From Archaeoglobus veneficus SNP6 (GTDB lineage Archaea > Halobacteriota > Archaeoglobi > Archaeoglobales > Archaeoglobaceae), in assembly GCF_000194625.1 (NCBI RefSeq), contig NC_015320.1, positions 62,001 to 126,000 on the forward strand: a DNA stretch of 64,000 bases, in the 5' to 3' direction. Below, in pieces: positions 6,094-26,027 of this stretch. The notes beneath the pieces are model-generated. The model searched no databases. It had not been told where the DNA came from and saw only the letters and a list, made by a program, of their open reading frames with translations. A program made the position numbers and the translations under genes. Numbering within the stretch: the stretch's first letter is position 1; each line of letters begins with the position of its first letter.

Positions 6094-6119
6094 GTCTACT
6101 CCCGCTCCACACTTACCCA

Positions 6120-6172
6120 ACCTTTTTATATCCTTCAACTGCTTCGCTAAAAAACTTGTGGAGGGAGACGAC
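6120..6172 (+). promoter_or_regulatory. Promoter and ribosome-binding site of the FKBP gene
   Basis: A TATA-like ctttttatat lies at 6121-6130 and a strong GGAGGGAG Shine-Dalgarno at about 6160-6167. This places the start at the ATG at 6173 rather than any codon further upstream in the open frame. Confidence 0.55.
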
Positions 6173-7009
6173 ATGGCCATTAAAGCTGGAGACTTTATCA
6201 AGGTTAGCTACACGGCAAAACTTGAAGATGGAACGGTAATCGATACAACAGATGAAGAGGTGGCAAAAGAGTACGGAATATACAACGAGAATGCGAAGTA
6301 CGGCGATATAACCATCGTGGTTGGAGAAGGGCACGTCGTCAAAGGCCTTGACGAGGAACTCGTAGGCAAAGACGTTGGCTTTAAGGGAGAAATCGTTGTC
6401 CCGCCTGAGAAGGCATTTGGCGAGTATGATCCAGAGAACAAGGAGGTCGTAAGCGTAAAGAGGTTCAAGGAGAGGCCGCAGCCAGGACAGCGCGTTCGCA
6501 TTGGCGACAAGGTTGGAACTGTGGAGAGAGTGATAGGCAGAAGGGCAATAATCGACTACAACCACCCGCTTGCAGGCAAGACGCTCATCTTCGACGTTGA
6601 AGTCAAGGAGCTCATAGAGGACGATGCAGAGAAAATAAAGGCCCTCTTCTTCATAAATACGGGAGTTGATGTTGAAGTCGAGCTCGACGGGAAGAAGGCG
6701 GTTGTGGAAGTTCCGAAGGGTGTTGCTTTCAGTCAGTACTTTGCAATAGGGAAGTTTGCAGCCATAAACGCAATTTTCAAGCTCCTTGACATTGAAGAGA
6801 TAGACATAGTGGAGAGGTTCAAGAAGGAAGAGGAAAAGGCCGTGATAGAGGCCATAGAGATGGCCAAGGGAGGGGAAGCTGAGGATACAGATACGGACAG
6901 AGAAGAAGGGAAAGAAGGCGAAGAAACTGAAGAGACATCCAAAGCGGGTGATAAGGGAGAAGAAGGAAAAGAAGAAGCAAGTGAAGAAGAAAAACATGCA
7001 GAAAGTTAA
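6173..7009 (+). CDS. FKBP-type peptidyl-prolyl isomerase, long archaeal form
   Basis: The 278-residue protein folds proline-containing peptides in the cytosol. Residues 5-30 carry the FKBP start (GDFIKVSYTAKLEDGTVIDTT), followed by an IF (insert-in-flap) chaperone domain around GEYDPENKE, the return strand NHPLAGKTLIFDVEV, and a C-terminal archaeal domain (about 155-235). The tail is about 45 residues of Asp/Glu/Lys. The start is fixed by the Shine-Dalgarno. The last 3 bp overlap the end of the convergent adenosine-specific kinase gene. Confidence 0.93.
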   Translation: MAIKAGDFIKVSYTAKLEDGTVIDTTDEEVAKEYGIYNENAKYGDITIVVGEGHVVKGLDEELVGKDVGFKGEIVVPPEKAFGEYDPENKEVVSVKRFKERPQPGQRVRIGDKVGTVERVIGRRAIIDYNHPLAGKTLIFDVEVKELIEDDAEKIKALFFINTGVDVEVELDGKKAVVEVPKGVAFSQYFAIGKFAAINAIFKLLDIEEIDIVERFKKEEEKAVIEAIEMAKGGEAEDTDTDREEGKEGEETEETSKAGDKGEEGKEEASEEEKHAES

Positions 7010-7494
7010 TCGAGCCTGTATCCGAGCTTCTCAACGAGCTTTCTTCTCTCCCTCTTTTCCTCCTCGCTTTCTATTTTCGTTACCGCAGTGCCGTCAACCG
7101 CCCCAAGCACGGCCCTTCCAAGCTCCGTCTCGGCAACGATTATTTCGATGGGGTTTGCAGATGCAACAAAGATATTGCAAACTGCAGGATGCATTTTTAC
7201 GGCGTTGAGGACATTTATTGGAAAAGCGTTCGACGTCATTATGACGAAGACGTGGCTTGCCCCTATTGCGAGGCAGTTTTTCGCAGCGAGTTCCTTCAGC
7301 TCCTCGTCGTTGCCTGTCACCCTCGTAAGCTTTGGTTGAGCTTCATTCATCGCAACTGCACACTTGATGCCCGGCACAGTCGTCAGCATGGTCTTAAACA
7401 GGTCGTCGCACGTAAAAACAGCAAAGTTTCCCTGACCGACAATTACCTGATACTTACAATCAGGGTTCTCAATCTTAACGGCCTCGATTTTCAT
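7006..7494 (-). CDS. Adenosine-specific kinase (DUF355 family)
   Basis: The 162-residue protein aligns over its full length, from memory, with the archaeal adenosine-specific kinase family: IVGQGNFAVFTCDDLFK, the CAVAMNEAQPKLTR segment, then FPINVLNAVKMHPAVC and a conserved IFVASANP loop. The family was named from a structural-genomics member, and its physiological substrate is poorly established. It ends in 4 bp of overlap with the convergent FKBP gene. Confidence 0.8.
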   Translation of the reverse strand: MKIEAVKIENPDCKYQVIVGQGNFAVFTCDDLFKTMLTTVPGIKCAVAMNEAQPKLTRVTGNDEELKELAAKNCLAIGASHVFVIMTSNAFPINVLNAVKMHPAVCNIFVASANPIEIIVAETELGRAVLGAVDGTAVTKIESEEEKRERRKLVEKLGYRLD

Positions 7495-11964: not shown

Positions 11965-12056
11965 GGGCCCGTGGCTCAGCCTGGTTAGAGCGCTCGCCTG
12001 ATAAGGCGTATGCCGCAGAAAGCGAGAGGTCCGGGGTTCAAACCCCCGCGGGCCCA
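11965..12056 (+). tRNA. tRNA-Ile (anticodon GAT), with an intron
   Basis: The arms close perfectly: acceptor gggcccg/cgggccc (11965-11971 with 12049-12055), discriminator A12056, anticodon stem ctcgc/gcgag (11993-11997 with 12022-12026) and T stem cgggg/ccccg (12032-12036 with 12044-12048). The anticodon GAT is at 12000-12002. A 17-nt insert splits the anticodon loop after position 37. CCA is not encoded. Confidence 0.95.
12004..12020 (+). other. tRNA-Ile intron (17 nt)
   Basis: The sequence aggcgtatgccgcagaa separates A37 (12003) from A38 (12021), the canonical archaeal position 37/38. Removing it restores a normal seven-base loop ctgataa. Splicing would need the bulge-helix-bulge endonuclease. 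The insert itself can form a small ggc/gcc hairpin. Confidence 0.88.
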
Positions 12057-12142
12057 CTCGGGCTTTTTATAAGAGCTTGTTGAAGCCTACTATTGCATTA
12101 GTTTTGCTATGATACACACATTAACTCAAAAATCTTAAAAAA

Positions 12143-12733
12143 TCAAATTCTACCGGTCAGAGATGTGAATAGAGATTTCAGAACATCGTAGAGCGAGAAG
12201 GGTTTCGGCTTCTCCTCCTGCGGCGTTTCCTTCACTCCAACTTCTTCTTTCAGCTCCGCAAACTTATATATGACCTTGCCATGACACGCAACACATATCT
12301 CGTTCAGAATTCCATAATGGATTTCGTGCACTCCTCCCTTATGGCAGTAGTAGCAGTCCTTCGAATCGGGCTTGACAACAACGCCCTCTCCATGGCATGC
12401 CGAGCACTTTACATTAGTGTGAGGGACATGGACAGCTATGGCATCGAGGTTCTCACTGCTATAACCGGCGCCAACATGGCACCTGATGCATGGATCAAGG
12501 CCGTGAAGCTTTGATAGTTTTTCCATGACTACGTGCTCGCCTTTCCATATGTCGACGCTATGACACCTGCAATGAGAGAGTTTGGATATCTGTTCCTGCT
12601 TGCTTAGAAGTAACTCGTGGCAGGGGAAACAGATTTCACCGTAACCAGGAACGTGTTGCTGAGCAGATAGAGCCTTCCCACTTATCAAGATTATACAGAG
12701 CAGTGTTAGCAGTATCAGGCGTTTTTTCAACAT
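12143..12733 (-). CDS. Secreted multihaem c-type cytochrome (5 CxxCH plus one CxCH)
   Basis: The 196-residue protein starts MLKKRLILLTLLCI at 12731-12733, a clear signal peptide or anchor, so it acts outside the membrane. Haem-binding motifs in order are CFPCH, CRCH, CIRCH, CSACH, CYYCH and CVACH. CRCH is one residue short of the standard CxxCH. The C-terminus (KPFSLYDVLKSLFTSL) may be an amphipathic anchor. It lies downstream of two further cytochrome genes on the same strand, so they probably act together in extracellular or periplasmic-side electron transfer. Confidence 0.9.
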   Translation of the reverse strand: MLKKRLILLTLLCIILISGKALSAQQHVPGYGEICFPCHELLLSKQEQISKLSHCRCHSVDIWKGEHVVMEKLSKLHGLDPCIRCHVGAGYSSENLDAIAVHVPHTNVKCSACHGEGVVVKPDSKDCYYCHKGGVHEIHYGILNEICVACHGKVIYKFAELKEEVGVKETPQEEKPKPFSLYDVLKSLFTSLTGRI

Positions 12734-12814
12734 CAGACAAAAATGAGTTACGTGAGTATAAATCTGTTTTCGTTTTTGATGGGGAAAAATAAGCAAATAA
12801 ATCGCTCGTGACGT

Positions 12815-13633
12815 TTACCAACCCGGCCAGTTGCTTGCATCGTTTACGCTACCATTTCCAGTGGTGTTACCGTACACCGTTGTGTACCTGGTACCATTAA
12901 CAGTCCAGTTCGTAACGTTGTAGTGCGTTGTAACGCCAGATGTACCCGTATTGTATTCATACGTACAGTTGAACTCAAGGCTAACCTTGTGGGTCCAGTT
13001 TATCTTAACAGGCACGTAGGTGTGACAGGCAATACATGCTTCGTTTGAATCTACCATCTTCGAGCTATTTATAGCGTTTAGAACGAATACCATATGAGCC
13101 TCGAGTCTTCCAGTGTCGCCAGAGTAATTTGTTAGACCGAACCCTCCTGCAGGCGGGACATCCGGAGAATAATCTCCGGTATTCTCCCCATGGCACTTAG
13201 CACACTGGTCATACGAGAAGTAAGGTGAACCCGTATGACTTCCTCCAAGAATCGCATCGAACTCTTTCTTTTTTACACATCCATGGCAAGCCATACAGGC
13301 CACGGTCGATGCTGCATGAGCTTTCTCTCCTATGACAATTTCACTTTCTCCAGCAGTAGCATATTGATAATCTCCCCAGTACACACGATGACAAAACTCA
13401 CAGTCCATCCTTCCATAACCAGTTTCGCCCGTATGCGGTCCTACTGTCGACTCCATTTCATCTACAATGTCAGCGTGGCATTTCTCGCATGGCACATCTG
13501 TGGAGATTCTGTAGCCTCCATCCAGCTTGTACCACATGTGCTGACCAACAAACAATGAAACAGTCTGCGGCAGAACGATAAGACTTACAGCCATTAATGT
13601 ACAAGAGATTACTGCAAGCTTTCCGATTGTCAT
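12815..13633 (-). CDS. Pentahaem c-type cytochrome with sequon-rich C-terminus
   Basis: The 272-residue protein has an N-terminal membrane helix (LAVISCTLMAVSLIVLPQTVSLF) followed by GQHMWY. Five CxxCH motifs follow: CEKCH, CEFCH, CMACH, CAKCH and CIACH. The last 70 residues contain many N-glycosylation sequons (NWT, NCT, NVT, NWT, NGT, NTT, NGS). This tail is almost identical to that of the next upstream gene at 13805-14593, while the middle differs. GGTGA precedes the ATG. The likely role is surface electron transfer; the partner is unknown. Confidence 0.9.
   Translation of the reverse strand: MTIGKLAVISCTLMAVSLIVLPQTVSLFVGQHMWYKLDGGYRISTDVPCEKCHADIVDEMESTVGPHTGETGYGRMDCEFCHRVYWGDYQYATAGESEIVIGEKAHAASTVACMACHGCVKKKEFDAILGGSHTGSPYFSYDQCAKCHGENTGDYSPDVPPAGGFGLTNYSGDTGRLEAHMVFVLNAINSSKMVDSNEACIACHTYVPVKINWTHKVSLEFNCTYEYNTGTSGVTTHYNVTNWTVNGTRYTTVYGNTTGNGSVNDASNWPGW
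12818..13053. repeat. Homogenised 236-bp tract, copy 1 (cytochrome 3' end)
   Basis: This matches 13823-14058 without gaps, with about 15 differences by eye (about 94% identity). The rest of the two cytochrome genes is far more diverged. It encodes the CIACH haem site and the sequon-rich tail. Confidence 0.85.
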
Positions 13634-13804
13634 TTTAATTCACCAACAAAATTTTTAAGAAACTCGCTTTAGTAGAATATAATTTTTTCTTTTTTCTTAA
13701 CGTAAGCCAATTAAAATATTATTCCGAGAAAAGTATTTCGAGATTTCTGATACCCAACACTCAAAGTGGAAAATAAATTCTAATTAAAAATAAATATAAA
13801 TAAA

Positions 13805-14593
13805 TTACCAGCTATACGGATACCAACCCGGCCAGTTGCTTGCATCGTTTACGCTACCGTTTCCAGTTGTGTTGCCAAATACCGTTGTGTACCTGGTACC
13901 ATTAACAGTCCAGTTCGTAACATTGTAGTGCGTTGTAACGCCAGATGTACCCGTGTTATATTCATATGTACAGTTGAACTCAAGGCTAACCTTGTGGGTC
14001 CAGTTTATCTTAACTGGTACATAGGTGTGACAGGCAATACATGCTTCGTTTGAGTCTATCAGCGTTTTATCCTCTACCGCTCTTTCTATGAACGTCTGGT
14101 GAGCTTCTTTCGTTCCATAAGTTGTGTCACCGTTGTCGTAGTTGTAAGGTGAAGAAGCAGTATCAGTAGTTACGTTATCAAATCCTCCAGCAACGGGTGC
14201 ACCTGAGTATGGAGCATTACCATTCGGACCAAACTCGTGGCAGGCCATACACGCTATCGTTGCTGCTGCATGTGCTTCCTGTCCAGGTGTAGCACTAGTA
14301 CCATCTCCACTCGCGAACGTTCCAACCACGCTCGTCCTGTGACACTCACCGCATGCAGCTCTTATGTGCTCAACTGTATCAGTTCCCCCACCTATCGTTT
14401 TGTGAGCTCCCGGATTGTTTTTGAACTCTGCAAAGACATCAGCGTGACATTTCTCGCAAGGGAGGTTGTTGCCAGTGCCACTTATGTTATACCACATGTG
14501 CTGCCCAAGAAACAGTGAAGTCGTCGAAGGCAGTACAAGAGTACCCATAGCAGCCAGTGTCACCATCAGCAGTGCCAGCTTTCCTCCATTCAT
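13805..14593 (-). CDS. Tetrahaem c-type cytochrome, paralogue of the neighbouring gene
   Basis: The 262-residue protein shows an N-terminal helix (LALLMVTLAAMGTLVLPSTTSLF), the shared GQHMWY, and CxxCH motifs CEKCH, CGECH, CMACH and CIACH. Compared with the paralogue at 12815-13633 it lacks the CAKCH site. The C-terminal 75 residues (YVPVKINWTHK onward) are nearly the same, with the same sequons, plus a short extension YPYSW. A Shine-Dalgarno GGGGGTGA precedes the ATG. The 171-bp gap to the paralogue is AT-rich and may hold a separate promoter. Confidence 0.9.
   Translation of the reverse strand: MNGGKLALLMVTLAAMGTLVLPSTTSLFLGQHMWYNISGTGNNLPCEKCHADVFAEFKNNPGAHKTIGGGTDTVEHIRAACGECHRTSVVGTFASGDGTSATPGQEAHAAATIACMACHEFGPNGNAPYSGAPVAGGFDNVTTDTASSPYNYDNGDTTYGTKEAHQTFIERAVEDKTLIDSNEACIACHTYVPVKINWTHKVSLEFNCTYEYNTGTSGVTTHYNVTNWTVNGTRYTTVFGNTTGNGSVNDASNWPGWYPYSW
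13823..14058. repeat. Homogenised 236-bp tract, copy 2
   Basis: This is the second copy of the shared cytochrome 3' segment (see 12818-13053). It starts 20 bp inside the gene end, because this copy keeps a five-residue extension. Confidence 0.85.
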
Positions 14594-14868
14594 TTTTATT
14601 CACCCCCAGTTGATAGTGTCTTGAGGACAATATTTAAGTGTTTTGAAAAAAAGCTGATGAAGAGCTAATTATAACAATTACAAGTTTGATAGCTTGTTCT
14701 ACTGTTTGGGCTGTTTTGATAAATATTGTGATTTAGTAATAATATATAAGTGTAACGTATTATTACTATCTAAATCGAAACTTGAATTGCAAATATTTGA
14801 ACTACTTCGGAAAAAGCACAAACCAAAACTATCAAATAAGTAATTACAAATTGCTAACATTTTTAATT
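14594..14868. other. AT-rich intergenic region upstream of the tetrahaem cytochrome gene
   Basis: No gene is seen. aatatataag near 14742-14751 is TATA-like, but its orientation relative to the cytochrome gene (minus strand) is uncertain. Confidence 0.4.
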
Positions 14869-15897
14869 TCAAATAGATGAAAAATCACACAACCTCGTCT
14901 GCCCCGCCACATATGGAGCCGCCTTTTTAACGCTGAACCCCATTCTCTTCAAGTCTCTAAGGCTGTAACCCTTCTCCATAAGTTTTGCTGCTTTCAAACC
15001 TATGCCAGGGATGTCAATCGGCCTTTCTATTCCAAACTTCTCCGCGACCAGAGCCTTCGGGTCGCCTTTGAGCATCCCATCTTCAAGAACGTCCATTATT
15101 CGACTGGCGTCGAATCCGTAAAGCCTTATGAGAGCATCGACGTTGTAGAGTCTTGCGACTCTTCTTCCACTCTCTCTTCTGCGACTCTCCATCGGCGTAC
15201 CCTTAACAGGAGTGAAGGGAGAGATGTAGAACCTTGTTACTCCGTATTCTTCGTACTGCTTTTTCATACAGGATATAACGTCTGCATCGCTCTCTCCAAG
15301 GCCCGCTATAACCTGTGTGGTGTGGCTGACCTTCCTGCGTCTTCTTACTTCTCTCGAAATCCAGCGTTCTCTCCTCAGCACATCGTGCCTACTCTTTACG
15401 CTGCCCACTTCGTTGAGCATCGATGGCTTAGCCACCTCTATATTTATGCTAACTCTATTGGCAATTTCAACCGCCTGCTTTATCTGCTCTCTACTTGCTC
15501 CAGGAACGACCTTCAGGTGAATGTAACCCCCAAATTCTTTCCTTATGAGCCGTCCAGTCTCGATTATATCCTCCATAACCTTCTCTGGATCTGAGTGCAT
15601 TCCAGAGCTGACGAACACGCCATCGACGAGTCCAAGTCTTCTTAGTTCGAGAAATGCCCGGGCAAACTGTTCGGGGGTTACTGAGATACCTTTCCTCCAC
15701 GGATTAGGGCAGTATGTACAATCAAACCTGCATTTGCTTGAAAGCAGTGCCTTAAACAGCCTGACTCTATTTTTACCCTTTGCTACGTAGACCAGGCTAT
15801 GTGCATCAAATCTGCAGTTCTCGTGGCACACATCAAACCTGCTCTCTGCTGCGAGTCTTGCAAGTGTCTGGAAGTTCACGGTAAAACTTAGCGGCAA
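14869..15897 (-). CDS. Radical-SAM protein with C-terminal helix-hairpin-helix (COG4277 type)
   Basis: The 342-residue protein has a radical-SAM cluster motif CRFDCTYC (Cx3CxxC) near residue 58, extra N-terminal cysteines (CHENC), and a C-terminal HhH with IDIPGIGLKAAKLMEKG. Known: the family is annotated as putative DNA modification/repair radical SAM, and in many bacteria it neighbours a uracil-DNA-glycosylase-like partner. No such partner is adjacent here. The substrate is unknown. It is divergent from thrC over 77 bp. A 275-bp AT-rich gap follows its stop. Confidence 0.87.
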   Translation of the reverse strand: MPLSFTVNFQTLARLAAESRFDVCHENCRFDAHSLVYVAKGKNRVRLFKALLSSKCRFDCTYCPNPWRKGISVTPEQFARAFLELRRLGLVDGVFVSSGMHSDPEKVMEDIIETGRLIRKEFGGYIHLKVVPGASREQIKQAVEIANRVSINIEVAKPSMLNEVGSVKSRHDVLRRERWISREVRRRRKVSHTTQVIAGLGESDADVISCMKKQYEEYGVTRFYISPFTPVKGTPMESRRRESGRRVARLYNVDALIRLYGFDASRIMDVLEDGMLKGDPKALVAEKFGIERPIDIPGIGLKAAKLMEKGYSLRDLKRMGFSVKKAAPYVAGQTRLCDFSSI

Positions 15898-15940
15898 AGC
15901 TTAATCTCTCTTTTGACCGGTGCGAAAGTGCTCGATATGC

Positions 15941-15974
15941 GCAAGCTTAAATACCCTCACCACGAGCGGGTTCC
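15941..15974 (+). promoter_or_regulatory. Probable promoter of thrC
   Basis: gcttaaata at 15945-15953 is a good archaeal TATA box 22-30 bp before the thrC ATG. No Shine-Dalgarno is visible, so the transcript is probably leaderless. Confidence 0.55.
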
Positions 15975-17162
15975 ATGGAATACTACCTTCGGTGCATCGA
16001 CTGCGGTAAAAAATACGAGAGAGAAGACATATACACGTGTGAGTGTGGCGGATTGCTTGAGGTTGCCATAGACTTTGATTCCGTTGAAATCGACTTCAAA
16101 TTTGATGGCAACGAGTTGAGAGTCTGGAAGTATCGCTGCTTGCTTCCAGTTAAAAGAGAACCGGTATCGCTTAAAGAGGGTGGAACACCGCTGTATCACG
16201 CTACAAAGCTTGCAGAAGAGCTTGGGTGTAAAGTTTACGTCAAGCATGAAGGAGCAAATCCATCCGGATCTTTCAAAGATAGAGGTATGACTGTAGGAGT
16301 TACAAAGGCAATAGAGCTCGGTAGAAACGCCGTTGCCTGCGCATCGACAGGCAATACCTCAGCATCCATGGCAATGTATGCTGCGAAGGCTGGCTTAAAG
16401 GCCTACGTTTTGCTTCCAGCAGGTAAGGTGGCGCTGGGCAAGGTTGCTCAGGCTTTGATGCACGGTGCGAAGGTTATAGGGATCAGGGGAAACTTCGATG
16501 AAGCTCTTGCTCTTGTGAGAAAGATAAGCGAAGAGGAAGGATTCTATTTGCTCAACTCTGTTAACCCCTTCAGGCTCGAGGGGCAGAAGACGATAGCCTA
16601 CGAGATCGTGGATGAAATAGGAACGCCGGACAGAGTTGTACTGCCCGTAGGAAATGCAGGCAACATCTCGGCGATATACAAGGGGTTTAAAGAGCTCAAA
16701 GAACTTGGCCTGATCGACTCAATTCCGAAAATGTCGGGTGTGCAGGCCGAAGGGGCGAACCCCATCTACAAGGCCGTTATGGAGTGTAGGGAGGACATAG
16801 ATCCAGTTTTAAAGCCTGAGACCGTTGCTACTGCAATAAGGATTGGTCAGCCCGTAAATGCGAAGAAGGCTTTAAGGGCGATATACGAGTCGAATGGGAC
16901 AGCAGTTCAGGTTAGTGACGAAGAGATCATCCGTGCTCAGAAAGATTTGGCGGCAAAGGAGGGAATTGGCGTTGAGCCTGCGAGTGCTGCAAGTGTTGCT
17001 GGTCTGAGAAAGCTCGTGGCCGAGGGAGTAGTTGAGAGAGATGAGACTGTTGTCTGCATAACAACTGGCCACCTGCTCAAGGATCCTGAAGCAGTCATAA
17101 GGGCTTGCGGTCAGCCCATTGAGGTTGATGCAAGTCTGGAGGCAATTAGGGCTGTTCTTTAA
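15975..17162 (+). CDS. thrC: Threonine synthase
   Basis: This PLP enzyme converts O-phosphohomoserine to threonine. The 395-residue protein starts with a zinc-ribbon-like segment (CIDCGKKY...CECGG) found in many archaeal ThrC proteins. The PLP lysine is K101 in GSFKDRG; the cofactor-binding glycine stretch is VLPVGNAGN and the C-terminal PLP-N1 site is CITTGHLLKDP. The start at ATG 15975 fits the TATA spacing. It appears monocistronic. Confidence 0.95.
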   Translation: MEYYLRCIDCGKKYEREDIYTCECGGLLEVAIDFDSVEIDFKFDGNELRVWKYRCLLPVKREPVSLKEGGTPLYHATKLAEELGCKVYVKHEGANPSGSFKDRGMTVGVTKAIELGRNAVACASTGNTSASMAMYAAKAGLKAYVLLPAGKVALGKVAQALMHGAKVIGIRGNFDEALALVRKISEEEGFYLLNSVNPFRLEGQKTIAYEIVDEIGTPDRVVLPVGNAGNISAIYKGFKELKELGLIDSIPKMSGVQAEGANPIYKAVMECREDIDPVLKPETVATAIRIGQPVNAKKALRAIYESNGTAVQVSDEEIIRAQKDLAAKEGIGVEPASAASVAGLRKLVAEGVVERDETVVCITTGHLLKDPEAVIRACGQPIEVDASLEAIRAVL

Positions 17163-17274
17163 TTATATTTTTGATTTTTATGGCTTTTTATAGCAGTATC
17201 GACGTTCGCATAAAAATCGTCGCTTAGCAATCCCGAGGAAAATTTTTTTAAGTTTTATAGAGTAGCATACTAAT

Positions 17275-17334
17275 GCCCGCCAGCCATGCGTCCCCTGAAG
17301 TGATGATGGGGATTCCACACGGCGGGCTACAACC
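17275..17334 (+). ncRNA. Candidate archaeal H/ACA pseudouridylation guide RNA
   Basis: Lower stem gcccgcc/ggcgggc (17275-17281 with 17321-17327) is followed after one base by an ACA box (17329-17331). The upper stem tcccc/gggga (17291-17295 with 17308-17312) is capped by TGAAGTGATGAT, which contains the CUGA and UGAUGA elements of an L7Ae-binding kink-loop. The internal pocket strands are 9 nt (17282-17290) and 8 nt (17313-17320). The spacing from pocket to ACA is about 16 nt, within the family rule. The GC-rich block stands out from AT-rich surroundings. The target uridine was not determined. Confidence 0.8.
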
Positions 17335-17380
17335 CTTTCATGGATTTTACACTTTCTTTAGTAGGGGATAAAGATACAGC

Positions 17381-17402
17381 GTTCTAAATATTTGTTTAGA
17401 AC
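17381..17402. promoter_or_regulatory. 8-bp inverted repeat, possible operator
   Basis: gttctaaa at 17381-17388 pairs with tttagaac at 17395-17402 around 6 nt. It lies about 150 bp before the TATA box of the HD gene. It could be a regulator site or a terminator for the upstream RNA. Confidence 0.4.
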
Positions 17403-17580
17403 ATTAGTGAGGCATAAGCAAGCCTGCAACTAAAAAAACAAATGTCTTGGCTCGAAAAATATCCTCTGAAGACCAATTCTGCCAATTTAATAACTAAGCA
17501 AACCTGAACCCCGTAGTCTACTGCCAGTATGCAACAAAAAAGAATGACTTAAATACTTACTATAAGTTTTGTTAGTGTGT

Positions 17581-19041
17581 ATGGAGATTAGAGATCCAAT
17601 ACATGGCTTTATACACCTAAATGATGCCGAGAAAGAACTAATTAACACTGAACCCTTTCAAAGGCTTAGGAACATAAAGCAACTAGGTCTAACATGCTAC
17701 CTCTACCCCGGGGCTACCCATACTAGGTTTGAGCATTCGCTGGGAGTTATGCACGTAGCGACTCAGATTGTTAGGAGCATATTGAATAAACACAAAGTAG
17801 AGGATCTGGCTGAATATCTCGGGTTGGCCAACCCAGGGCATTTAAAAGATAGATTAGAAACCACAACCAGACTGGCAGCATTATTTCACGACCTTGGGCA
17901 TCCTCCTTTTTCACATTCCAGCGAGAATTTACTAAAAAAAGAGCATGAAGAGTATAGTGCTGAAATTATTGAAACATACTATAATGAACTTTTGAGACCT
18001 TTTGATAGGACTGTATCTGTCGAAGACCTATCGTTTTTAATCACTAAGGGAAAAAAGGCAAACGGAATTCTTGGGGGCGATCCTCTACTGAGCTTAATTC
18101 AGGAGATAATTTCTGGTGAAATCGATGCAGATCGGATGGATTATCTCCTTAGAGACTCACACTACACGGGCGTTGCTTATGGTAATTTTGATTACGGTAG
18201 GATTGTCGAGACTCTTACGATTACGCCTAAATTGGAGCGAGAAACCGATGGGGAGTCTGCAGATGGGTTAACCAAAATTTTCGGTGACGAGCTGATTAGT
18301 GAGGTTAAAAAGTCGCCAATAAAAATGGAACCAAGAATTGGCGTCGAGGTTGGAGGGATCTATGTAGTTGAACAATTATTAATTGCTAGATACTTTATGT
18401 TTAATCAAGTTTATTTCCATCCCATTAGGAGGTGCTATGACTCTTTGCTGGGTAGATACTTGAGTAGAGCATTTCCAGAGGGTTATCCCGAAGATCTGGA
18501 AAAATATTTGGATTTAGATGATGTATACGTCATGAATCTTATTAAAAATGATGTAAAATCCAAAAAAGTGGAGGATACGGAGAGAAAAAAGCTTGCTGAG
18601 TCAATATATAGGAGAGAACACCCTAGGCTGGTGTTTGAGTACAATGTTGACTTAACTAAAGATCAATTCAACGAAGTTTGTGAAAGAATGACCGGAGCCT
18701 TAGCTGAAAAGTTCAGTTTGAATGAAAATACTGATATTATCGTTGATCGGGCGGAAAAGTCCATTACGAAGATTCAGCAATCCGATTTTCTCGTGATAGC
18801 GGACGAGATTTCGAAAGATTTAAATAAATATTGGAGTATAGAAAAGATGAGGAAACTCTGGGAATCGAGAGAAGTTAAGTTAAAACACGTCTATCAAGTT
18901 TCAGATCTAATAAAAATGTTGGTGCAAAGTGTTAAGAAGATTAACAAGTTGAGGGTTTATGCCAGAGTTGGAAAGGGAGATGTTGATGATGCTTGGAGTT
19001 TGTGCAGTAGGATTGTAAGCGAAATTAGGTGTGGGGTATGA
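17581..19041 (+). CDS. HD-domain phosphohydrolase (COG1078, SAMHD1/dGTPase-like)
   Basis: The 486-residue protein starts MEIRDPIHGF at ATG 17581, 25 bp after a TATA box. HD-family ligands are visible: H in HTRFEHSLGVMH, the HD pair in LFHDLGHPPFSH, and the distal D in GEIDADRMDYLLRD. Relatives are dNTP triphosphohydrolases or related nucleotidases. The C-terminal half is longer and charged. DNA composition is more AT-rich than in neighbouring genes, suggesting transfer. Its stop overlaps the next start in an ATGA, so the two are translated together. Confidence 0.87.
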   Translation: MEIRDPIHGFIHLNDAEKELINTEPFQRLRNIKQLGLTCYLYPGATHTRFEHSLGVMHVATQIVRSILNKHKVEDLAEYLGLANPGHLKDRLETTTRLAALFHDLGHPPFSHSSENLLKKEHEEYSAEIIETYYNELLRPFDRTVSVEDLSFLITKGKKANGILGGDPLLSLIQEIISGEIDADRMDYLLRDSHYTGVAYGNFDYGRIVETLTITPKLERETDGESADGLTKIFGDELISEVKKSPIKMEPRIGVEVGGIYVVEQLLIARYFMFNQVYFHPIRRCYDSLLGRYLSRAFPEGYPEDLEKYLDLDDVYVMNLIKNDVKSKKVEDTERKKLAESIYRREHPRLVFEYNVDLTKDQFNEVCERMTGALAEKFSLNENTDIIVDRAEKSITKIQQSDFLVIADEISKDLNKYWSIEKMRKLWESREVKLKHVYQVSDLIKMLVQSVKKINKLRVYARVGKGDVDDAWSLCSRIVSEIRCGV

Positions 19042-19547
19042 TGAAGAACAGCGATTTGATTCTTTATGTGGTGAAAAAATTGAACGAAGTCGGGAGCTGG
19101 GCTGGAAATACGCATCTCCAAAAAATAATTTACTTGATTCAGTCAACATGTAATATCAAACTATATGACTTTGTCCTCTACCATTATGGCCCTTATTCCT
19201 TCGATCTAAGAGAGGATGTGGATCTTCTAACCATCTCTAACTACTTAGAAAGAGATGTCGACGAGTTCGGCTACCACTACAGACTTTCTTCAGTTTTAGA
19301 ACCATCTATACCAAGCGAAATACGAGATAAAGTAGATAGGATCGTGAAAGTGTTTGGTAAAGCACCAACGACGCTACTCGAGTTAATCACAACTGTGGAC
19401 TACGTAGCCAGAAAATCTCCGGGAAAGAGTGACAATGAAATCGTTGAAATCGTGAAGAAAATTAAACCCCACTTCTCAGAAAGGGCAATCGAGCTCGCTT
19501 TAAAGTGGTTAAAAGAAGATTTTAAAAAAATATTTAATGAAGAATAA
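19038..19547 (+). CDS. YwgA/Panacea-like (SocA-type) protein partnered with the HD hydrolase
   Basis: The 169-residue protein starts at ATG 19038, inside the HD gene's stop (ATGA). The N-terminal half carries the pattern LQKIIYLIQ then FVLYHYGPYSFDLREDVD, as in YwgA (COG3432) and in the Panacea/SocA antitoxin fold. The rest is helical, ending in a lysine-rich tail. No catalytic residues are recognised. Known: Panacea proteins neutralise varied toxins, and I recall that YwgA lies beside the HD protein YwfO in Bacillus. Here it may regulate or neutralise the HD enzyme (inference). Confidence 0.65.
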   Translation: MMKNSDLILYVVKKLNEVGSWAGNTHLQKIIYLIQSTCNIKLYDFVLYHYGPYSFDLREDVDLLTISNYLERDVDEFGYHYRLSSVLEPSIPSEIRDKVDRIVKVFGKAPTTLLELITTVDYVARKSPGKSDNEIVEIVKKIKPHFSERAIELALKWLKEDFKKIFNEE

Positions 19548-19658
19548 ATATTTATAAATTTTATTTTCATGTACTTCGCTTGTATCTACAGCAACTCAAA
19601 CAGAAAAGATACTTCGCTCTAACTCATATGACCATGGGGTTCATCAGAAAGAATACAA

Positions 19659-20021
19659 TTAAGAATCCACAACAACCTCAAATCCAGCCTTTCTAAGCCC
19701 CTTTATCGCCCTGTCGAGGTCTGACTCTTTTACAAATATGTGATCTGTTGAGTATGAAGATACAACAAATATGCTTACTCCTTCTTCCGCCAAAGCGGTG
19801 GAAACTCTCGCAATAAAGCCAACGAGGTCGAAGGGGAGCACACCATCGAACGTAAGCAACCTGTACCCTCTTTGCACATCAAAGGCATTGACCTCATCAA
19901 CTCTCGACTCCTCCACGATGACCGTAATCTCTCTTCCATCGTACACAACCGCAAAAGCACCGTCAACGGCCTCTTTTGCTTTCACTATTGCGTACCTTTC
20001 TTTGCTGACGACAAATTTCAG
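19659..20021 (-). CDS. ACT-domain protein, probably starting at a CTG
   Basis: The core [11 protein letters not shown]...[39 protein letters not shown] is a tandem ACT fold of the amino-acid-sensing (ACT_7/CASTOR-like) type. The only usual start is a GTG at 19983-19985, but the open frame upstream reads [18 protein letters not shown], which looks like the family's first beta strand. A CTG at 20019-20021 overlaps the TGA of the dCMP deaminase (CTGA) and follows GAGGAGGGGG. I take this CTG as the likely start (120 residues). The ligand is unknown. Confidence 0.7.
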
Positions 20022-20497
20022 GACTCCCCCTCCTCGCCACCGTCTATGGGCATGTAAACGACTTCAATGCCTGCCTCCTTCAGAAACTCCAGCCCCCTGC
20101 CATCTGCGTATCTCCTGCCGTAAACGACCTTTTTTATCCCGGCGTTGATTATCATCTTCGCACACATTATGCACGGCTGATGCGTGGTGTAGAGCGTACC
20201 GCCTACTATGCTAACTCCGTGTACAGCAGCCTGTATAATCGCGTTCTGCTCCGCATGTACAGCCCTGCAGAGTTCGTGCCTCTCTCCCGATGGGACATTG
20301 AGCTCTTTCCTCAGACAACCAATCTCAAGGCAGTGCGGCAGGCCTGAAGGTGCGCCGTTGTAGCCTGTTGCGAGTATGCGCTTGTCTTTGACTATCAGCG
20401 CTCCAACCTTCTGCCTGAGACACGTGGAGCGTGAAGCCACGACTCTCGCAATCTCCATGAAGTAGTGGTCGAGATCTGGCCTTTCGTCTCCACTCAT
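20018..20497 (-). CDS. Deoxycytidylate (dCMP) deaminase
   Basis: The 159-residue zinc deaminase makes dUMP from dCMP. Zinc and catalytic motifs are VHAEQNAI (His and Glu) and PCIMCAK (two Cys). An extra loop [11 protein letters not shown] may bind a second metal, as in known dCMP deaminases. The stop overlaps the start proposed for the ACT protein. The gene is 1 bp from the TatD-like gene upstream, so the three form an operon. Confidence 0.9.
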
Positions 20498-20498
20498 A

Positions 20499-21248
20499 TC
20501 AGAGCCTCAGGAACTTTTCCGCATTCTTAAATGCTAACTTCTCAACATCCTGCCTGCTGAAGTGCTGCTGCAGAAATTCTACCGTATCGCTGACGGCGAA
20601 AAGTTCCTCATCGCTAAATCCCGTGTCGCTGTTGAGCAGAAAGCGCTCAGAGCCATACTCATCCACGATGAACTTAACTTCTTCCTTCGAGAGCTTTCCC
20701 GGCTGAACCGTGAGGCCGGCCCAGTATCCATTTTTCAGGATTTTGCCAGCGGTTTTCACATTTGCATGATCCACGACCACAAGATCCTCTGGCATCCCAA
20801 CCTTCTGCAGGACTTCAAGAACCTTGTCGGTAACAACCTCCTTGTTCTTCCTTGGCGTGTGGACTATGCACGGAACGTCGAGCTTCTTTGCAAGTTCTAG
20901 CTGCTTTTCAAGCACCTCCACCTCAGCACTGCTGGCAGTTTCAAGGCCAATCTCACCGAAGGCCGTTGAGGGATTTTCCTCAAGATATTCCAGAACTTTA
21001 TCGTAGCCAGGAGGGATGCACCTCGGGTGTATACCTATCGCTGCGTAAATCACCATGCCAGCCTTTCTACCTCTCTCCATTTCAAAAGTCGTGAGTTTCC
21101 GGAAGAGGTCTATGAGTGTTGAGGGGCCTGAAGGTTCCACGGGATAGTATGCACAGCTCACGACTCTCTTTATTCCTTTTTCTACCATTGCACGTAGTTC
21201 ATGAATTCCTTTGCCCTCTGAGTGAGTGTGCGTGTCGAAGCAATCCAT
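20499..21248 (-). CDS. TatD-related metal-dependent hydrolase (COG1099)
   Basis: The 249-residue amidohydrolase-fold protein begins with the metal motif FDTHTHSEG. Further likely ligands are in [27 protein letters not shown] and LLNSDTG. The first strand starts three residues after the ATG at 21246-21248, supporting this start. The family is archaeal and its substrate unknown; TatD relatives are deoxyribonucleases. It leads the operon with dCMP deaminase. Confidence 0.87.
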
Positions 21249-21682
21249 GGGAAAATGTCTACTGGCAGCTTTTAATTTTTTGGTGTTTTTTTGGTCAGAC
21301 CTGCGATCAGGCCCGTTAGTATTTTACCCCCACCCGAGTCTGAACCAATGTTAAACAGACTTCACAAGCGAATGAGATGGGCGACGCATAGAGCGTCCGT
21401 CGTCCACCTTTTAATCCACTTTAATTATTAGTTAAACTTTTGATTTATATCTCCCTCTCTCCCGATTCTGATTGCTGACATGGCTTTGCCTATCTGCTTT
21501 TCTTTTGCATTTTGATATATGTGAACCTGGTCTTCGATAAGTTAAGCTAAGCGGAAAAGGGAACTCTACAGCAGGTCGTCCACCTTTTTAAAGGTCGTGC
21601 ACAATTGGTGGTGGATGATTTCACGTTTCGATAGCGACCTTCAGAAACTTTTAAATTGGTATTTCAGGGAGAATTACTGATA
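21249..21682 (+). promoter_or_regulatory. CRISPR leader and divergent upstream region
   Basis: This 434-bp region has no gene. The part next to the array is AT-rich. It contains a 14-bp direct repeat gtcgtccacctttt (21399-21412 and 21575-21588), the second inside a palindrome acctttttaaaggt (21582-21595). Further left, ggtcagac at 21293-21300 pairs with gtctgaacc at 21338-21346 (one bulge), enclosing a cctg-cgat-cagg hairpin at 21300-21311. Array polarity makes this side the leader. Confidence 0.6.
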
Positions 21683-23197
21683 GTTGAAATCAGACTATTG
21701 TAGGATTGAAAGAACTGTGACCGAATCGAGAAACGAAAGAAAAGAAAGAGTTGAAATCAGACTATTGTAGGATTGAAAGCGTTTAGAAACGTCCCCGGCC
21801 ATGTCGAGGGGGGCTATTTTGTTGGTTGAAATCAGACTATTGTAGGATTGAAAGCGAGAAATGGTCGAAGCGATAGGGCTGAAAGAAGGCGAGTTGAAAT
21901 CAGACTATTGTAGGATTGAAAGTGCTCGGGGCGTTAAGTGTTGGGAAGATAGGAAAGGCAGTTGAAATCAGACTATTGTAGGATTGAAAGTCCCACGGTA
22001 GCATTCTGGTAGTAAATCCATCACCTGGTTGAAATCAGACTATTGTAGGATTGAAAGCCAGATAGCTTCATGAGGAGATAGATAACTGCACCTAGTTGAA
22101 ATCAGACTATTGTAGGATTGAAAGGAGCAGGAGCGGGAGCACTTGGTGGAGCAATAGGCGGGTTGAAATCAGACTATTGTAGGATTGAAAGGTTCAGATC
22201 GAAGGACAGATCAGGTTGGAGATTAGAAAGTTGAAATCAGACTATTGTAGGATTGAAAGCAGATTGGCTGGCAGGCTGGCAAGGGGTTCTACGACGTTGA
22301 AATCAGACTATTGTAGGATTGAAAGGAGGGAGACGGGCGGTGTGTAGCATGGCAGGGTATAGGGTTGAAATCAGACTATTGTAGGATTGAAAGGTATTTA
22401 GTGGTGGAATGTCTGTATCCTGTACTGGAGTTGAAATCAGACTATTGTAGGATTGAAAGCTGGTTCGTTCTTTCTCTCTGCGCGTACGACATCAAGTGTT
22501 GAAATCAGACTATTGTAGGATTGAAAGTTCCCGTTGACTGTTTCTTCGTCTGCAAATCTCTTCGGGTTGAAATCAGACTATTGTAGGATTGAAAGCCGTC
22601 AGGTGGTGGTGGAGGTATTGTAATCAAGTAAGTTGAAATCAGACTATTGTAGGATTGAAAGATTGCTACACGTCCAGCACTGGCCGGACTCATTGTAGTG
22701 TTGAAATCAGACTATTGTAGGATTGAAAGAACAGGAAGATGGACAAGCCCAGCACGCCAGCGAAGATCGTTGAAATCAGACTATTGTAGGATTGAAAGTA
22801 ATGGTTGCCGGGAAGGCGATTTTGTTAATGAAAGCGGTTGAAATCAGACTATTGTAGGATTGAAAGCATGTCGCATCTATACTGATGCGGTGTTTTAAAA
22901 TGTGTTGAAATCAGACTATTGTAGGATTGAAAGTCTGCCGGGAATAAGGGGGAGGATATGATGGATACAAAGTTGAAATCAGACTATTGTAGGATTGAAA
23001 GGAGTGTCGATGAGGGCGGCGCATTCACGAAAATAAACGGTTGAAATCAGACTAATGTAGGATTGAAAGAACGGGCACCGGGCCGTTGAGGATTTACTCT
23101 CTCAAGAGTTGAAATCAGACTAATGTAGGATTGAAATGCAGCCCGGGCAGTAGTACACCATCCAAAACCCCGTTGAAATCAGAAGCAGGATTGAAAG
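21683..23197 (+). CRISPR. CRISPR array, 23 repeats and 22 spacers
   Basis: The 30-bp repeat starts GTTGAAATCAGACTATTG and ends GGATTGAAAG, resembling Archaeoglobus repeats. Twenty copies are identical. The copies at 23040 and 23108 carry a T-to-A change (actaatg), and the latter also ends in T. The last copy (23172-23197) lacks 4 bp. Degeneration at the right end puts the leader on the left and transcription on the plus strand. Spacers are 34-39 bp except one of 45 bp (21780-21824). One spacer (22125-22161) could encode a glycine-zipper peptide. No cas gene lies within the window. Confidence 0.98.
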
Positions 23198-23236
23198 ACG
23201 TAGTTTTAATTAACACCCTCTCCATAATAACAAAAT

Positions 23237-23581
23237 ATGCTCATTGAAGACTACGGGTTTGGAAGGATTGTTGTCAAAGGCAGAACATACACGAGCGACG
23301 TTATTGTGTTCTGGGATGGAAGCGTTAAGGAATGGTGGAGGAAGAAAGGTCATTACGCGGACATCAACGACGTTAAGTCAGTTCTCGATGCAAAGCCTGA
23401 AGTCATAGTCTTCGGCACGGGTAAGTACGGAGCGATGAAAGTAGATGAAAATGCTGTCAAAGAGCTTGAGAAGATGGGCATCCACGTGGAAGTGGACATA
23501 ACAGAAAGAGCAACAAAGATATTCAACGACCTTGTTGCGGCTGGAAAGAGGGCTGTGCTTGCTGCTCATCTGACGTGCTGA
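23237..23581 (+). CDS. Mth938-like domain protein (DUF498)
   Basis: The 114-residue protein matches the Mth938/NDUFAF3 fold: opening YGFGRIVVKGRTYTSDVIV, middle PEVIVFGTGKYG, and a C-terminal helix NDLVAAGKRAVLAAHLTC. Eukaryotic relatives help assemble complex I; the archaeal role is unknown. It begins 39 bp after the last CRISPR repeat. Confidence 0.87.
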   Translation: MLIEDYGFGRIVVKGRTYTSDVIVFWDGSVKEWWRKKGHYADINDVKSVLDAKPEVIVFGTGKYGAMKVDENAVKELEKMGIHVEVDITERATKIFNDLVAAGKRAVLAAHLTC

Positions 23582-23625
23582 CTGTGTGGCTGAACATTTT
23601 TATGCATTGATACCAACGAAGAACG

Positions 23626-24408
23626 ATGAAGCTGAGAGTAGGAGACTACATGACAAAGAATGTCATAACACTCTCACCCGATAACACTGTTGATGAAGCA
23701 ATCGAGCTCATACAGAAGACAGGCCATGATGGATTCCCCGTTGTTGACGACAGCGGTAAGGTTATCGGGTACATCTCTTCCCGCGATCTCCTGAAAAAAG
23801 ACCCCAATACGAAAATCGGAGATATAATGAGCAAGCAGCTTTACGTTGCGAGGGAATACATGGATTTAAGGGATGCTGCGAGAGTCATGTTCAGAACCGG
23901 CCATTCAAAGCTCCCAGTTGTTGATGACGATGGCAGGCTCTTGGGCATAATATCCAACGCAGACGTAATAAGAAGCCAGATAGAGCGAGCCGATCCAGGC
24001 AAGGTAGAAAAGCTCAAAAAGACGATCGAGAAGGTACATGGAGTTAACATTGAAGTGGAGAGGGGCAAAGTTGAAGTTGACAGACTGATTCCGACTCAGA
24101 CGAAGGTTTTTGCGGACGAGTTGAAGGGAAGAATTTACGAGCTGAGAAGAGGTCTTGCAGAGCCCATTGTTGTGATAAAGAAGGGTGGACGGCTGTACCT
24201 CGTCGATGGTCACCACAGGGTTGTTGCGGCGAAGAAGATTGGCGTAAAAACGCTCGACGCATACATCCTTAAAGTTCCCGAAAACGTGGAACTCGGCATA
24301 GAGAGGCTCGTGAAGAAGAGGGGAATAAAATCTATCAGGGACATCGAGATAATCGAGGACGTCCCACACCCCCTCGTAGAGATAACCTTCAGAAACACGC
24401 GCAGGTGA
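23626..24408 (+). CDS. Tandem CBS domains fused to a ParB/sulfiredoxin-like domain
   Basis: The 260-residue protein has two CBS domains (about 1-60 and 61-120; motifs FPVVDDSGKVIGYISSRD and LPVVDDDGRLLGIIS) followed by a ParB-like domain with the DGHHRVVAAKKIG signature. Known: the archaeal serine kinase SerK, which makes O-phosphoserine for cysteine synthesis, is a ParB-like protein with the same kind of DGHHR motif. This gene could be a CBS-regulated serine kinase. A DNA-partition role is less likely because no ParA is nearby. CBS domains suggest adenylate sensing. Confidence 0.8.
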   Translation: MKLRVGDYMTKNVITLSPDNTVDEAIELIQKTGHDGFPVVDDSGKVIGYISSRDLLKKDPNTKIGDIMSKQLYVAREYMDLRDAARVMFRTGHSKLPVVDDDGRLLGIISNADVIRSQIERADPGKVEKLKKTIEKVHGVNIEVERGKVEVDRLIPTQTKVFADELKGRIYELRRGLAEPIVVIKKGGRLYLVDGHHRVVAAKKIGVKTLDAYILKVPENVELGIERLVKKRGIKSIRDIEIIEDVPHPLVEITFRNTRR

Positions 24409-24412
24409 AATT

Positions 24413-24691
24413 ATGTTGGACGAGCTCTACAACATTCTCGTTGACAGAAAACTGAATCCGAGGCCAGAGTCCTACACTGCAAAGCTTCTTTACGGCGAAA
24501 AGGGTATTAACGCCATTCTCGAAAAGATTGGTGAGGAGGCAACCGAGCTCGTAATTGCGGCCAAGGACGGGAAAAGGGAAGAGATAATATACGAGACTGC
24601 CGACCTGCTTTACCACATCCTCGTGTTGCTCGTAGCATTGGATATACGTTTAGAGGAGATATGGAATGAACTTGAGAGGAGAAAGAGATAG
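24413..24691 (+). CDS. hisE: Phosphoribosyl-ATP pyrophosphatase
   Basis: The 92-residue enzyme performs the second step of histidine synthesis. It shows the MazG-like metal pattern KIGEEATELVIAAK and YETADLLYH. The start is 4 bp after the CBS-ParB stop and the 3' end overlaps SRP19 by 26 bp, so the genes are one transcription unit. Other his genes are not in the window. Confidence 0.95.
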   Translation: MLDELYNILVDRKLNPRPESYTAKLLYGEKGINAILEKIGEEATELVIAAKDGKREEIIYETADLLYHILVLLVALDIRLEEIWNELERRKR

Positions 24692-25007
24692 AAACTGGAT
24701 CATCTGGACGTTCAATCTTGACAGGAGGAAGAGCAGGAAAGAAGGTAGAAAGATAGCTAAGAAGCTCGCAGTCTCAAATGTAAAGCTTTCAGAGCTTGTC
24801 GAAGCCTGCAAGGCCCTCAATATCCCATGCAGGGCAGAGGAAAAGAAGTATCCAAAGTGCTGGTGGGAAGAAGGCGGAAGAGTTGTTGTGCCGAAATCCG
24901 GCAGCAAGCCAGAGCTTATGAGGAAAATTGCCGCAAAAATTGCAGAGTTAAGGGAAAAGAAAGAGCAGGAAAAGAAGAGCAGAAAGGATAAAAAGAAAAA
25001 GAAGTAA
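24666..25007 (+). CDS. srp19: Signal recognition particle 19 kDa protein
   Basis: The protein binds 7S RNA and helps SRP54 assembly. The 113-residue sequence shows IIWTFNLDRRKSRKEGRKIAKK, the central EEKKYPKCWWEEGGRVVV and a Lys-rich C-terminus, as in Archaeoglobus SRP19. The ATG at 24666 makes the N-terminus about 8-10 residues longer than usual, but no better start codon follows. It overlaps hisE and touches the next gene (TAATG). Confidence 0.95.
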   Translation: MNLRGERDRNWIIWTFNLDRRKSRKEGRKIAKKLAVSNVKLSELVEACKALNIPCRAEEKKYPKCWWEEGGRVVVPKSGSKPELMRKIAAKIAELREKKEQEKKSRKDKKKKK

Positions 25008-25957
25008 TGAAGTACGCTTTTCTTCTCTCAGGCGATCTGCCGGAAATAGCTTTTGGAGAAATCAGATACCTGTTTGGCCCTGCAGAACTCGATATAAGGG
25101 TTGCTGTTGCCGAAGCTATCGATTCTCTTTTTCCACGCCTCGCCCTGAGCCATGAAGTAATCGAGCTAATAACAGTATGCGAATGGCATGAGCTCGAAGA
25201 AGTGTTCGCCAACATGTCCCTCCCTCCACAGCCCCTGTGTGTCAGGGTTAAGAAGGTGAAGCCTGTTAGTATAAAAAGCCACGAGCTGGAGCGAAAGCTT
25301 GGGGCAGTGCTATGGCGGAGAGGGGCAAAAATAAGCGTCTCTTCTCCGAGGAGCATCGTTAAGGTATACCTTGCGGAAAAAGCCTACGTCGGCCTGCTCT
25401 GCCACGTAACCGACACGAAGCAATTCGAGGAGAGACACCCAAATAGAAGGCCGTACTTCAGACCGGGCGTAATCCTTCCGAGACTTTCAAGGGCACTTGT
25501 CAACATTGCAATTGGTAGCGGTCTGCTCCTTGACCCGATGTGCGGCACGGGAGGATTTCTGATGGAAGCGGGACTCATGAACCTCGACTATATCGGCGTT
25601 GAGGCTTTCGAAGAGATTGCAAGGGGTTGCGCGCTGAACCTGAGGCACTACGGCCTTCATGCCAGTGTTTTGTGTGGAGACGCGAGAAAACTGCCCCTGA
25701 AAGACGAATCCGTTGATGGCATAACAACAGATTTCCCCTACCTCCAGTCTTCAAAGAGCTACGGGACTCTCGAAGACCTCTACCGCAACTCTCTGCCCGA
25801 ATTCAGTCGGGTGTTGAAAAAAGGCTGTCGAGCCGTGTTGGTTTCAAACCTTGACGTGGAGGACATGATCTCTGAACACTTCAAAATCCTCGATATTTTC
25901 AGGTATAGAGTTCACGGCAGTCTTACGAGGAGAATTTACGTCTGTAAAAAATGCTGA
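25007..25957 (+). CDS. tRNA guanine-N2 methyltransferase (Trm-G10/Trm11 family)
   Basis: The 316-residue protein has an N-terminal THUMP-like part (about 1-140) and a Rossmann methyltransferase core. The SAM loop is LDPMCGTGGFLMEA; the acidic residue follows in GVEAFEE and the catalytic motif is TDFPY, a variant of the usual DPPY. The family makes m2G or m2,2G at tRNA position 10. The start codon overlaps the SRP19 stop (TAATG). Confidence 0.88.
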   Translation: MKYAFLLSGDLPEIAFGEIRYLFGPAELDIRVAVAEAIDSLFPRLALSHEVIELITVCEWHELEEVFANMSLPPQPLCVRVKKVKPVSIKSHELERKLGAVLWRRGAKISVSSPRSIVKVYLAEKAYVGLLCHVTDTKQFEERHPNRRPYFRPGVILPRLSRALVNIAIGSGLLLDPMCGTGGFLMEAGLMNLDYIGVEAFEEIARGCALNLRHYGLHASVLCGDARKLPLKDESVDGITTDFPYLQSSKSYGTLEDLYRNSLPEFSRVLKKGCRAVLVSNLDVEDMISEHFKILDIFRYRVHGSLTRRIYVCKKC

Positions 25958-26027
25958 CATTTTCGACGTCCAGTTAAAATCAGCGAAAAACAAAAACCAG
26001 AAAAGCAAGGCAAACAATCTGGCGAAT

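What the first reader, a model, noticed from the sequence alone, without database searches (positions are those of the whole stretch)
17581..19547. Two-gene module: HD nucleotidase plus YwgA/Panacea-like protein
The genes overlap by ATGA, share an AT-rich composition unlike neighbours, have their own leaderless promoter and lie about 2 kb from a CRISPR array. HD dNTPases can block phage by draining nucleotides, and Panacea-type proteins are known antitoxins. The pairing resembles the YwfO-YwgA adjacency I recall in Bacillus. This is the best candidate for an undescribed toxin-antitoxin or defence unit here.
Basis: inference. Interest (0 to 1): 0.62.

Follow-up and report, generated by a model that had tools for sequence, protein, structure and literature searches.

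The report
dNTPase paired with DarG-like antitoxin
Two overlapping genes in an archaeon encode a relative of the human antiviral enzyme SAMHD1, which destroys DNA building blocks, and a small protein shaped like the toxin-blocking half of the DarG antitoxin; the same pair recurs across more than a dozen phyla, several times inside known virus-defence operons, so it is very probably an overlooked defence or toxin-antitoxin unit.

Summary
HD (17581-19041) and its partner PA (19038-19547) overlap by ATGA and are unusually AT-rich. HD is a SAMHD1/EF1143-type dNTP triphosphohydrolase by sequence and fold, with catalytic residues intact. PA is not Panacea by Pfam's criterion: it is a free-standing DarG C-terminal (toxin-binding) domain (73/73 family members match the DarG model; the only significant PDB fold match is the M. 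tuberculosis DarTG complex). The pairing is real and widespread: 66 of 78 informative PA loci, from about 15 phyla, have HD directly upstream, and HD-seeded searches in two phyla give PA beside 17 of 17 complete cases. A second copy in this genome has HD split by a transposon while PA is intact. In several archaea and bacteria the pair sits between the helicase (HmaA) and methylase (HmaB) genes of Hma/BREX-related systems, or beside Type III restriction genes; control regions show none. Most likely it is a dNTP-depleting effector restrained by PA. No held paper describes this pair. The nearby CRISPR array is probably coincidence. There is no direct evidence of toxicity, neutralisation or antiviral activity.

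The parts
17581..19041 (+). HD gene: SAMHD1/EF1143-like dNTP triphosphohydrolase, 486 aa, proposed effector
   Evidence: PF01966 and PF19276 above cut-off; PDB sequence matches 2hek, 2o6i (EF1143), SAMHD1; fold match over nearly the full length to 4lrl/2o6i and SAMHD1; ligands H52, H103, D104, D184 and R49, H107, H112, H122 conserved in the family
19038..19547 (+). PA gene: stand-alone DarG C-terminal-domain-like protein, 169 aa, proposed antitoxin/regulator
   Evidence: NCBIfam DarG model matched on its C-terminal half, 1.4e-9, by 73/73 family members; significant fold match only to the 7yk3 DarTG complex, TM about 0.7; model pLDDT 95
19038..19041 (+). ATGA start/stop overlap that couples the two genes
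   Evidence: sequence; -1 overlap of the same type in 29 of 67 counted homologous pairs
17548..17556 (+). TATA-like element CTTAAATAC, possible promoter of a (nearly) leaderless transcript
   Evidence: sequence only; inference

Best explanation
A two-gene antiviral/toxin-antitoxin module. HD is a dNTP triphosphohydrolase that, when unleashed, lowers the dNTP pool and stops viral (and cellular) DNA synthesis. [quoted passage not shown] infection relieves this. In some hosts the pair works alone (as here); in others it is built into Hma/BREX-related or restriction operons as an extra, non-nuclease effector. Shown: the pairing, the families, the intact catalytic residues, the defence setting. Inferred: dNTP hydrolysis by this protein, binding of HD by PA, toxicity, trigger and antiviral effect.
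For: HD family and fold; ligand set of EF1143/SAMHD1 (PMC8177086) invariant or nearly so in 51 homologues. PA = DarG toxin-binding domain; that domain occludes DarT (PMC11481870). Conserved pair; identities of the two proteins co-vary across 49 pairs, r = 0.89, 0 of 2000 permutations as high. PA-linked HDs fall on one side of a 100/100 branch from archaeal housekeeping HDs and mix many phyla, and are patchy: 7/198 and 9/201 genomes. Operon with HmaA helicase and HmaB methylase; neighbours match 179 PADLOC models against 31 for controls. PA outlives HD: HD split by a transposon in this genome's second copy, deleted from L123, remnants only in L070 and L080; in two phyla searched with HD no complete case of HD without PA was met.
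Against: No experiment. PA is not strongly acidic (family median charge +0.8; -2 here), so literal DNA mimicry as in DarG is unlikely. The interface was not modelled. Some broken HDs are in draft metagenome assemblies and may be sequencing errors. A few PAs have other partners (Dgt-type dGTPase in L148, apparent Cas4-Cas1 in L137, a P-loop NTPase in L130), so PA is not tied to HD alone. Some acidobacterial HDs that may branch inside the linked group lack PA. In this window no other defence gene is adjacent.
Confidence: 0.6

Rival explanations
1. PA is an activator or sensor, not an antitoxin: it recognises an infection cue and switches a latent HD dNTPase on, so neither protein is toxic alone.
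For: The Panacea literature favours a sensor role for a loosely similar domain (PMC10440598); Clover shows a dNTPase that is inactive until cued (PMC12265719). SAMHD1/EF1143 enzymes are activated allosterically by nucleotides (PMC8177086).
Against: DarG's domain is an inhibitor; PA survives when HD is lost, which suits an antitoxin better than an activator.
Confidence: 0.2
2. Ordinary dNTP-pool housekeeping enzyme with a small regulatory subunit, unrelated to viruses.
For: HD enzymes of this fold balance dNTPs in many organisms; the window's neighbours are metabolic genes, including a dCMP deaminase.
Against: This genome has a separate HD gene (1676129) in the housekeeping clade; the pair is patchy, crosses phyla, is broken by a transposon in its second copy here and decayed in a relative, and sits inside defence operons elsewhere.
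Confidence: 0.08
3. A defence effector, but HD acts on something other than dNTPs (single-stranded nucleic acid, a modified or signalling nucleotide), with PA as guide or inhibitor.
For: The HD superfamily includes phosphodiesterases and Cas3 (weak PADLOC Cas3 matches); the pair sits beside DNA-modification genes.
Against: Closest sequence and fold matches are dNTP triphosphohydrolases with the same ligand set and the R/H/H/H catalytic companions.
Confidence: 0.12

Closest known systems
DarTG toxin-antitoxin system (DarG C-terminal domain)
   Same: PA matches only the C-terminal, toxin-binding part of DarG in sequence and fold; two-gene unit linked to phage defence.
   Different: No macrodomain, no DarT next to it; partner is an HD dNTPase; PA is not acidic.
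EF1143 / SAMHD1 dNTPases and the anti-phage dGTPases
   Same: Same fold and active-site residues as EF1143 and SAMHD1; likely dNTP depletion.
   Different: The known anti-phage dGTPases are of the Dgt branch, matched only weakly; this branch is tied to PA.
Clover (CloA dGTPase + CloB nucleotidyltransferase)
   Same: A dNTPase effector with a dedicated restraining partner gene (PMC12265719).
   Different: CloA is close to the Dgt-type dGTPases and CloB makes a nucleotide signal; PA is a DarG-like domain.
PanAT (Panacea) systems
   Same: Small antitoxin-like protein beside many effector types; weak similarity in two members.
   Different: Pfam cut-off not met; HD domain and dNTPase are not mentioned in the main text of either Panacea paper.
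Hma / DUF499 BREX-related Type-1 systems
   Same: The pair is embedded between HmaA and HmaB genes in several genomes.
   Different: The pair also occurs without them, as here; the survey of auxiliary effectors (PMC12839542) lists nucleases and does not mention HD-domain or dNTP enzymes.

Membership tests
SAMHD1/EF1143-type dNTP triphosphohydrolase | HD fold with metal ligands H..HD..D and companions R/H/H/H | tested here: met
   fold; ligand list PMC8177086
SAMHD1/EF1143-type dNTP triphosphohydrolase | hydrolysis of dNTP to nucleoside and triphosphate | not testable with these tools
   needs an enzyme assay
DarG C-terminal domain | profile match and fold of the toxin-binding domain | tested here: met
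   73/73 members match NF048014; the window protein matches its C-terminal half, far under the whole-protein cut-off because the macrodomain is absent; 7yk3 TM 0.69-0.71
DarTG system | DarG macrodomain and a DarT toxin gene beside it | tested here: not met
   PA is 169 aa without macrodomain; the neighbour is HD
Panacea (PanA, PF13274) | score over the curated Pfam cut-off | tested here: not met
   no match for the window protein; 2/73 members match at E below 0.01; the one scored singly has 21.6 bits against a cut-off of 25.7
Type II toxin-antitoxin system | two adjacent, overlapping genes that travel together | tested here: met
   (order is proposed toxin first)
Type II toxin-antitoxin system | toxin harmful alone, neutralised by direct binding of antitoxin | not testable with these tools
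   needs expression tests; loss asymmetry is only indirect
Anti-phage dGTPase (Dgt branch) | NF041026 or a similar Dgt model over cut-off | tested here: not met
   29 bits against a cut-off of 400
Clover | CloB nucleotidyltransferase beside the dNTPase | tested here: not met
   the partner is DarG-like

The most novel reading that the evidence does not exclude
A so far unnamed, widespread toxin-antitoxin/defence family in which a SAMHD1-type dNTPase is controlled by a stand-alone DarG-type antitoxin domain, used both as a solitary module (archaea such as this one) and as a built-in dNTP-depleting second effector of Hma/BREX-related and restriction systems.
Probability: 0.55. Interest if true: 0.72.

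Novelty: new variant of a known kind. Interest (0 to 1): 0.6.

Why it matters
SAMHD1 is the best-known antiviral dNTPase of animals. A prokaryotic branch closer to SAMHD1/EF1143 than the known Dgt-type phage-defence enzymes, carried with its own DarG-like partner and inserted into defence operons, would give a prokaryotic parallel to SAMHD1 immunity, explain how cells carry such a dangerous enzyme safely, and show that the DarG neutralising domain serves effectors other than DarT. It would also add a nucleotide-depleting effector to the BREX-related systems, for which the survey read here lists only nucleases.

Tried and rejected
Plasmid and phage collections gave essentially no relatives, so a plasmid or phage origin is not supported. 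Insertion at this site could not be dated: relatives keep the dCMP deaminase (some with TatD) but not the threonine synthase junction. CRISPR proximity was rejected as evidence: three ordinary genes lie between. DNA-mimic acidity of PA was tested and not found. Clover, Dgt-type defence and Panacea were considered and failed membership tests. One false HD hit (L137, a wrong frame over another gene) was removed from the counts. 9mr6, first taken for a possible bacterial defence enzyme, is a fungal SAMHD1.

Full report
WHAT IS THERE. The window is bases 62001-126000 of a 1,901,943-base single-contig genome. Its closest relatives seen here are Archaeoglobales (a congener's contig appears as 'Archaeoglobales archaeon', L069). 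HD runs 17581-19041 and PA 19038-19547, with an ATGA overlap. HD is the most AT-rich of the 42 long open frames in the window (39.2% GC against a mean of 48.6%); PA is 37.6%. The CRISPR array (22 repeats, 21683-23137) is separated from the pair by an ACT-domain gene, a dCMP deaminase and a TatD gene.

HD. Pfam gives HD and HD_assoc_2. The closest solved relatives by sequence are 2hek (Aquifex), 2o6i/EF1143 and SAMHD1 proteins, and by predicted fold EF1143 complexed with dGTP and dTTP (4lrl) and SAMHD1 (model pLDDT 81.5). EF1143 binds its metal with H66, H110, D111 and D183, and SAMHD1 also needs R164, H210, H215 and H233 (PMC8177086). By alignment the counterparts are H52, H103, D104, D184 and R49, H107, H112, H122. 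In 51 homologues H103, D104, H107, H112, H122 and D184 are invariant and R49 and H52 at least 90% conserved. So the enzyme should be active; this is inference from residues, not an assay.

PA. It has no Pfam match. It matches the DarG model only along that model's C-terminal half (1.4e-9), and all 73 aligned family members match the same model. A profile of the family finds the DarG chain 7yk3_B first, weakly, in the PDB, and the predicted structure (pLDDT 95) has just two significant fold matches, both DarG chains of the M. tuberculosis DarTG complex. In DarTG that C-terminal domain occludes DarT by resembling single-stranded DNA (PMC11481870). PA is not acidic as a family, so it would have to contact HD in its own way. 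The Panacea label fails: 2 of 73 members match, and the one scored singly is under the cut-off.

THE PAIR IS REAL. In 295 genomes of the phylum, HD relatives are common (245 genomes), but the highest-scoring ones are those next to PA. A scan of genome contigs with a PA alignment kept 80 loci from about 15 phyla: 67 were counted with HD directly upstream on the same strand and two were cut by the contig end. One of the 67 (L137) is a false frame, so 66 of 78; L070 and L080 keep only an HD tail. The alignment was seeded with HD-linked PAs, so this count could be biased; the reverse test is cleaner. With a bacterial HD as query, 198 genomes of one phylum gave 8 copies in 7 genomes, all 8 with PA, and 201 genomes of another phylum gave 10 copies, 9 with PA and one at a contig end.

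EXCEPTIONS. In a third phylum (Acidobacteriota) 2 copies have PA and 13 lack it. Seven of these 13 were placed in a quick tree: three (L196-L198) fall outside the main linked group, while four (L185-type) group with the divergent linked HD L089, so a PA-free side branch next to or inside the linked group cannot be excluded. In the careful tree all PA-linked HDs lie on one side of a 100/100 branch from archaeal housekeeping HDs, counting as linked the two marked 'unlinked' there (the transposon-split copy of this genome, and L078, whose PA frame overlaps too far for my rule). The quick tree adds a small, separate linked group (L180, L181, L195), so linkage may have arisen or been regained more than once. 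HD and PA identities co-vary across 49 pairs, r = 0.89. Phyla are mixed in the tree and occurrence is sparse, which suggests horizontal transfer.

DEFENCE SETTING. The nearest neighbours of 39 pairs (141 proteins) match 179 PADLOC models, led by HmaA, HmaB, DrmD/BrxH helicases and methylases; 134 proteins from 20 arbitrary regions match 31, mostly one UvrD-type helicase. Neither set is large and the PADLOC models overlap, so this is a rough comparison. More specific: in L078, L086, L102, L119, L123, L132, L140 and L142 an HmaA-like helicase lies just upstream of the pair and, in most of those whose contig reaches far enough, a DUF1156/HmaB-like methylase lies downstream. In L086 the helicase and HD genes overlap, and in L140 the PA and methylase genes overlap, each by the same ATGA type. 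None of the 20 control regions has such components. L133 and L129 have Type III restriction genes beside the pair. These Hma systems are the DUF499 BREX-related systems of PMC12839542, whose survey of auxiliary effectors covers nucleases and whose main text does not contain 'HD domain', 'dNTP' or 'DarG'. I found no held paper that describes an HD-PA pair; preprints and subscription papers are mostly not held, so 'undescribed' is provisional.

WHO NEEDS WHOM. The second copy in this genome (251-254 kb) has HD split by a transposase gene and PA intact (45-51% identity to the window pair). L123 has lost the body of HD cleanly within an otherwise similar operon while PA stays open. Of 80 loci, 52 have an intact HD upstream, 11 have a broken or short one (two of these near contig ends, others possibly assembly errors), 11 have none and 6 are cut by contig ends. 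An HD of the linked type without PA was not met in the HD-seeded searches outside the uncertain acidobacterial branch. In a relative (G097) HD is decayed and no PA is found. This is the pattern expected if HD is the dangerous partner, but it is indirect.

MECHANISM. I take HD to be a dNTP-depleting effector and PA its antitoxin or restraint, released by infection (confidence 0.6). The main rival is that PA is a sensor-activator. Clover is the nearest precedent for a restrained dNTPase (PMC12265719), but with a different enzyme branch and an unrelated partner. PA's occasional other partners (a Dgt-type dGTPase in L148; an apparent Cas4-Cas1 in L137; a P-loop NTPase in L130) suggest that this domain, like Panacea, can serve several effectors.

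VERDICT. It is a new variant of a known kind: dNTPase-based defence combined with a DarG-type control domain.

Noticed in passing
L005:4133-8087 (genome C1 about 250-254 kb): Second copy of the pair in the same genome: HD split by a transposase gene (6051-6917), PA intact, another transposase (IS630-like in two frames) next to it.
   Followed up: yes
L148:3202-5120: PA homologue preceded by a Dgt-type dGTPase instead of the SAMHD1-type HD: possible partner swap within dNTPases.
   Followed up: partly
L137:4071-6561: PA homologue directly downstream of a protein that looks like a Cas4-Cas1 fusion, with no HD (read from the sequence, not tested by a profile).
   Followed up: no
L077:5332-6353: PA homologue next to a MerR-like protein of unknown function and no HD.
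   Followed up: no
L156 (G097), 6198-7383 minus strand: Decayed HD gene 85% identical in protein to the window HD over its first half, without PA: relic of the module in a related archaeon.
   Followed up: partly
window 12143-14593, minus strand: Two cytochrome-like genes (CxxCH motifs) that share a long, nearly identical C-terminal stretch (recent duplication or conversion), next to a third CxxCH-rich protein.
   Followed up: no
window 21683-23137: CRISPR array of 22 repeats; no cas gene recognised by eye among the open frames listed on either side (12000-26000).
   Followed up: partly
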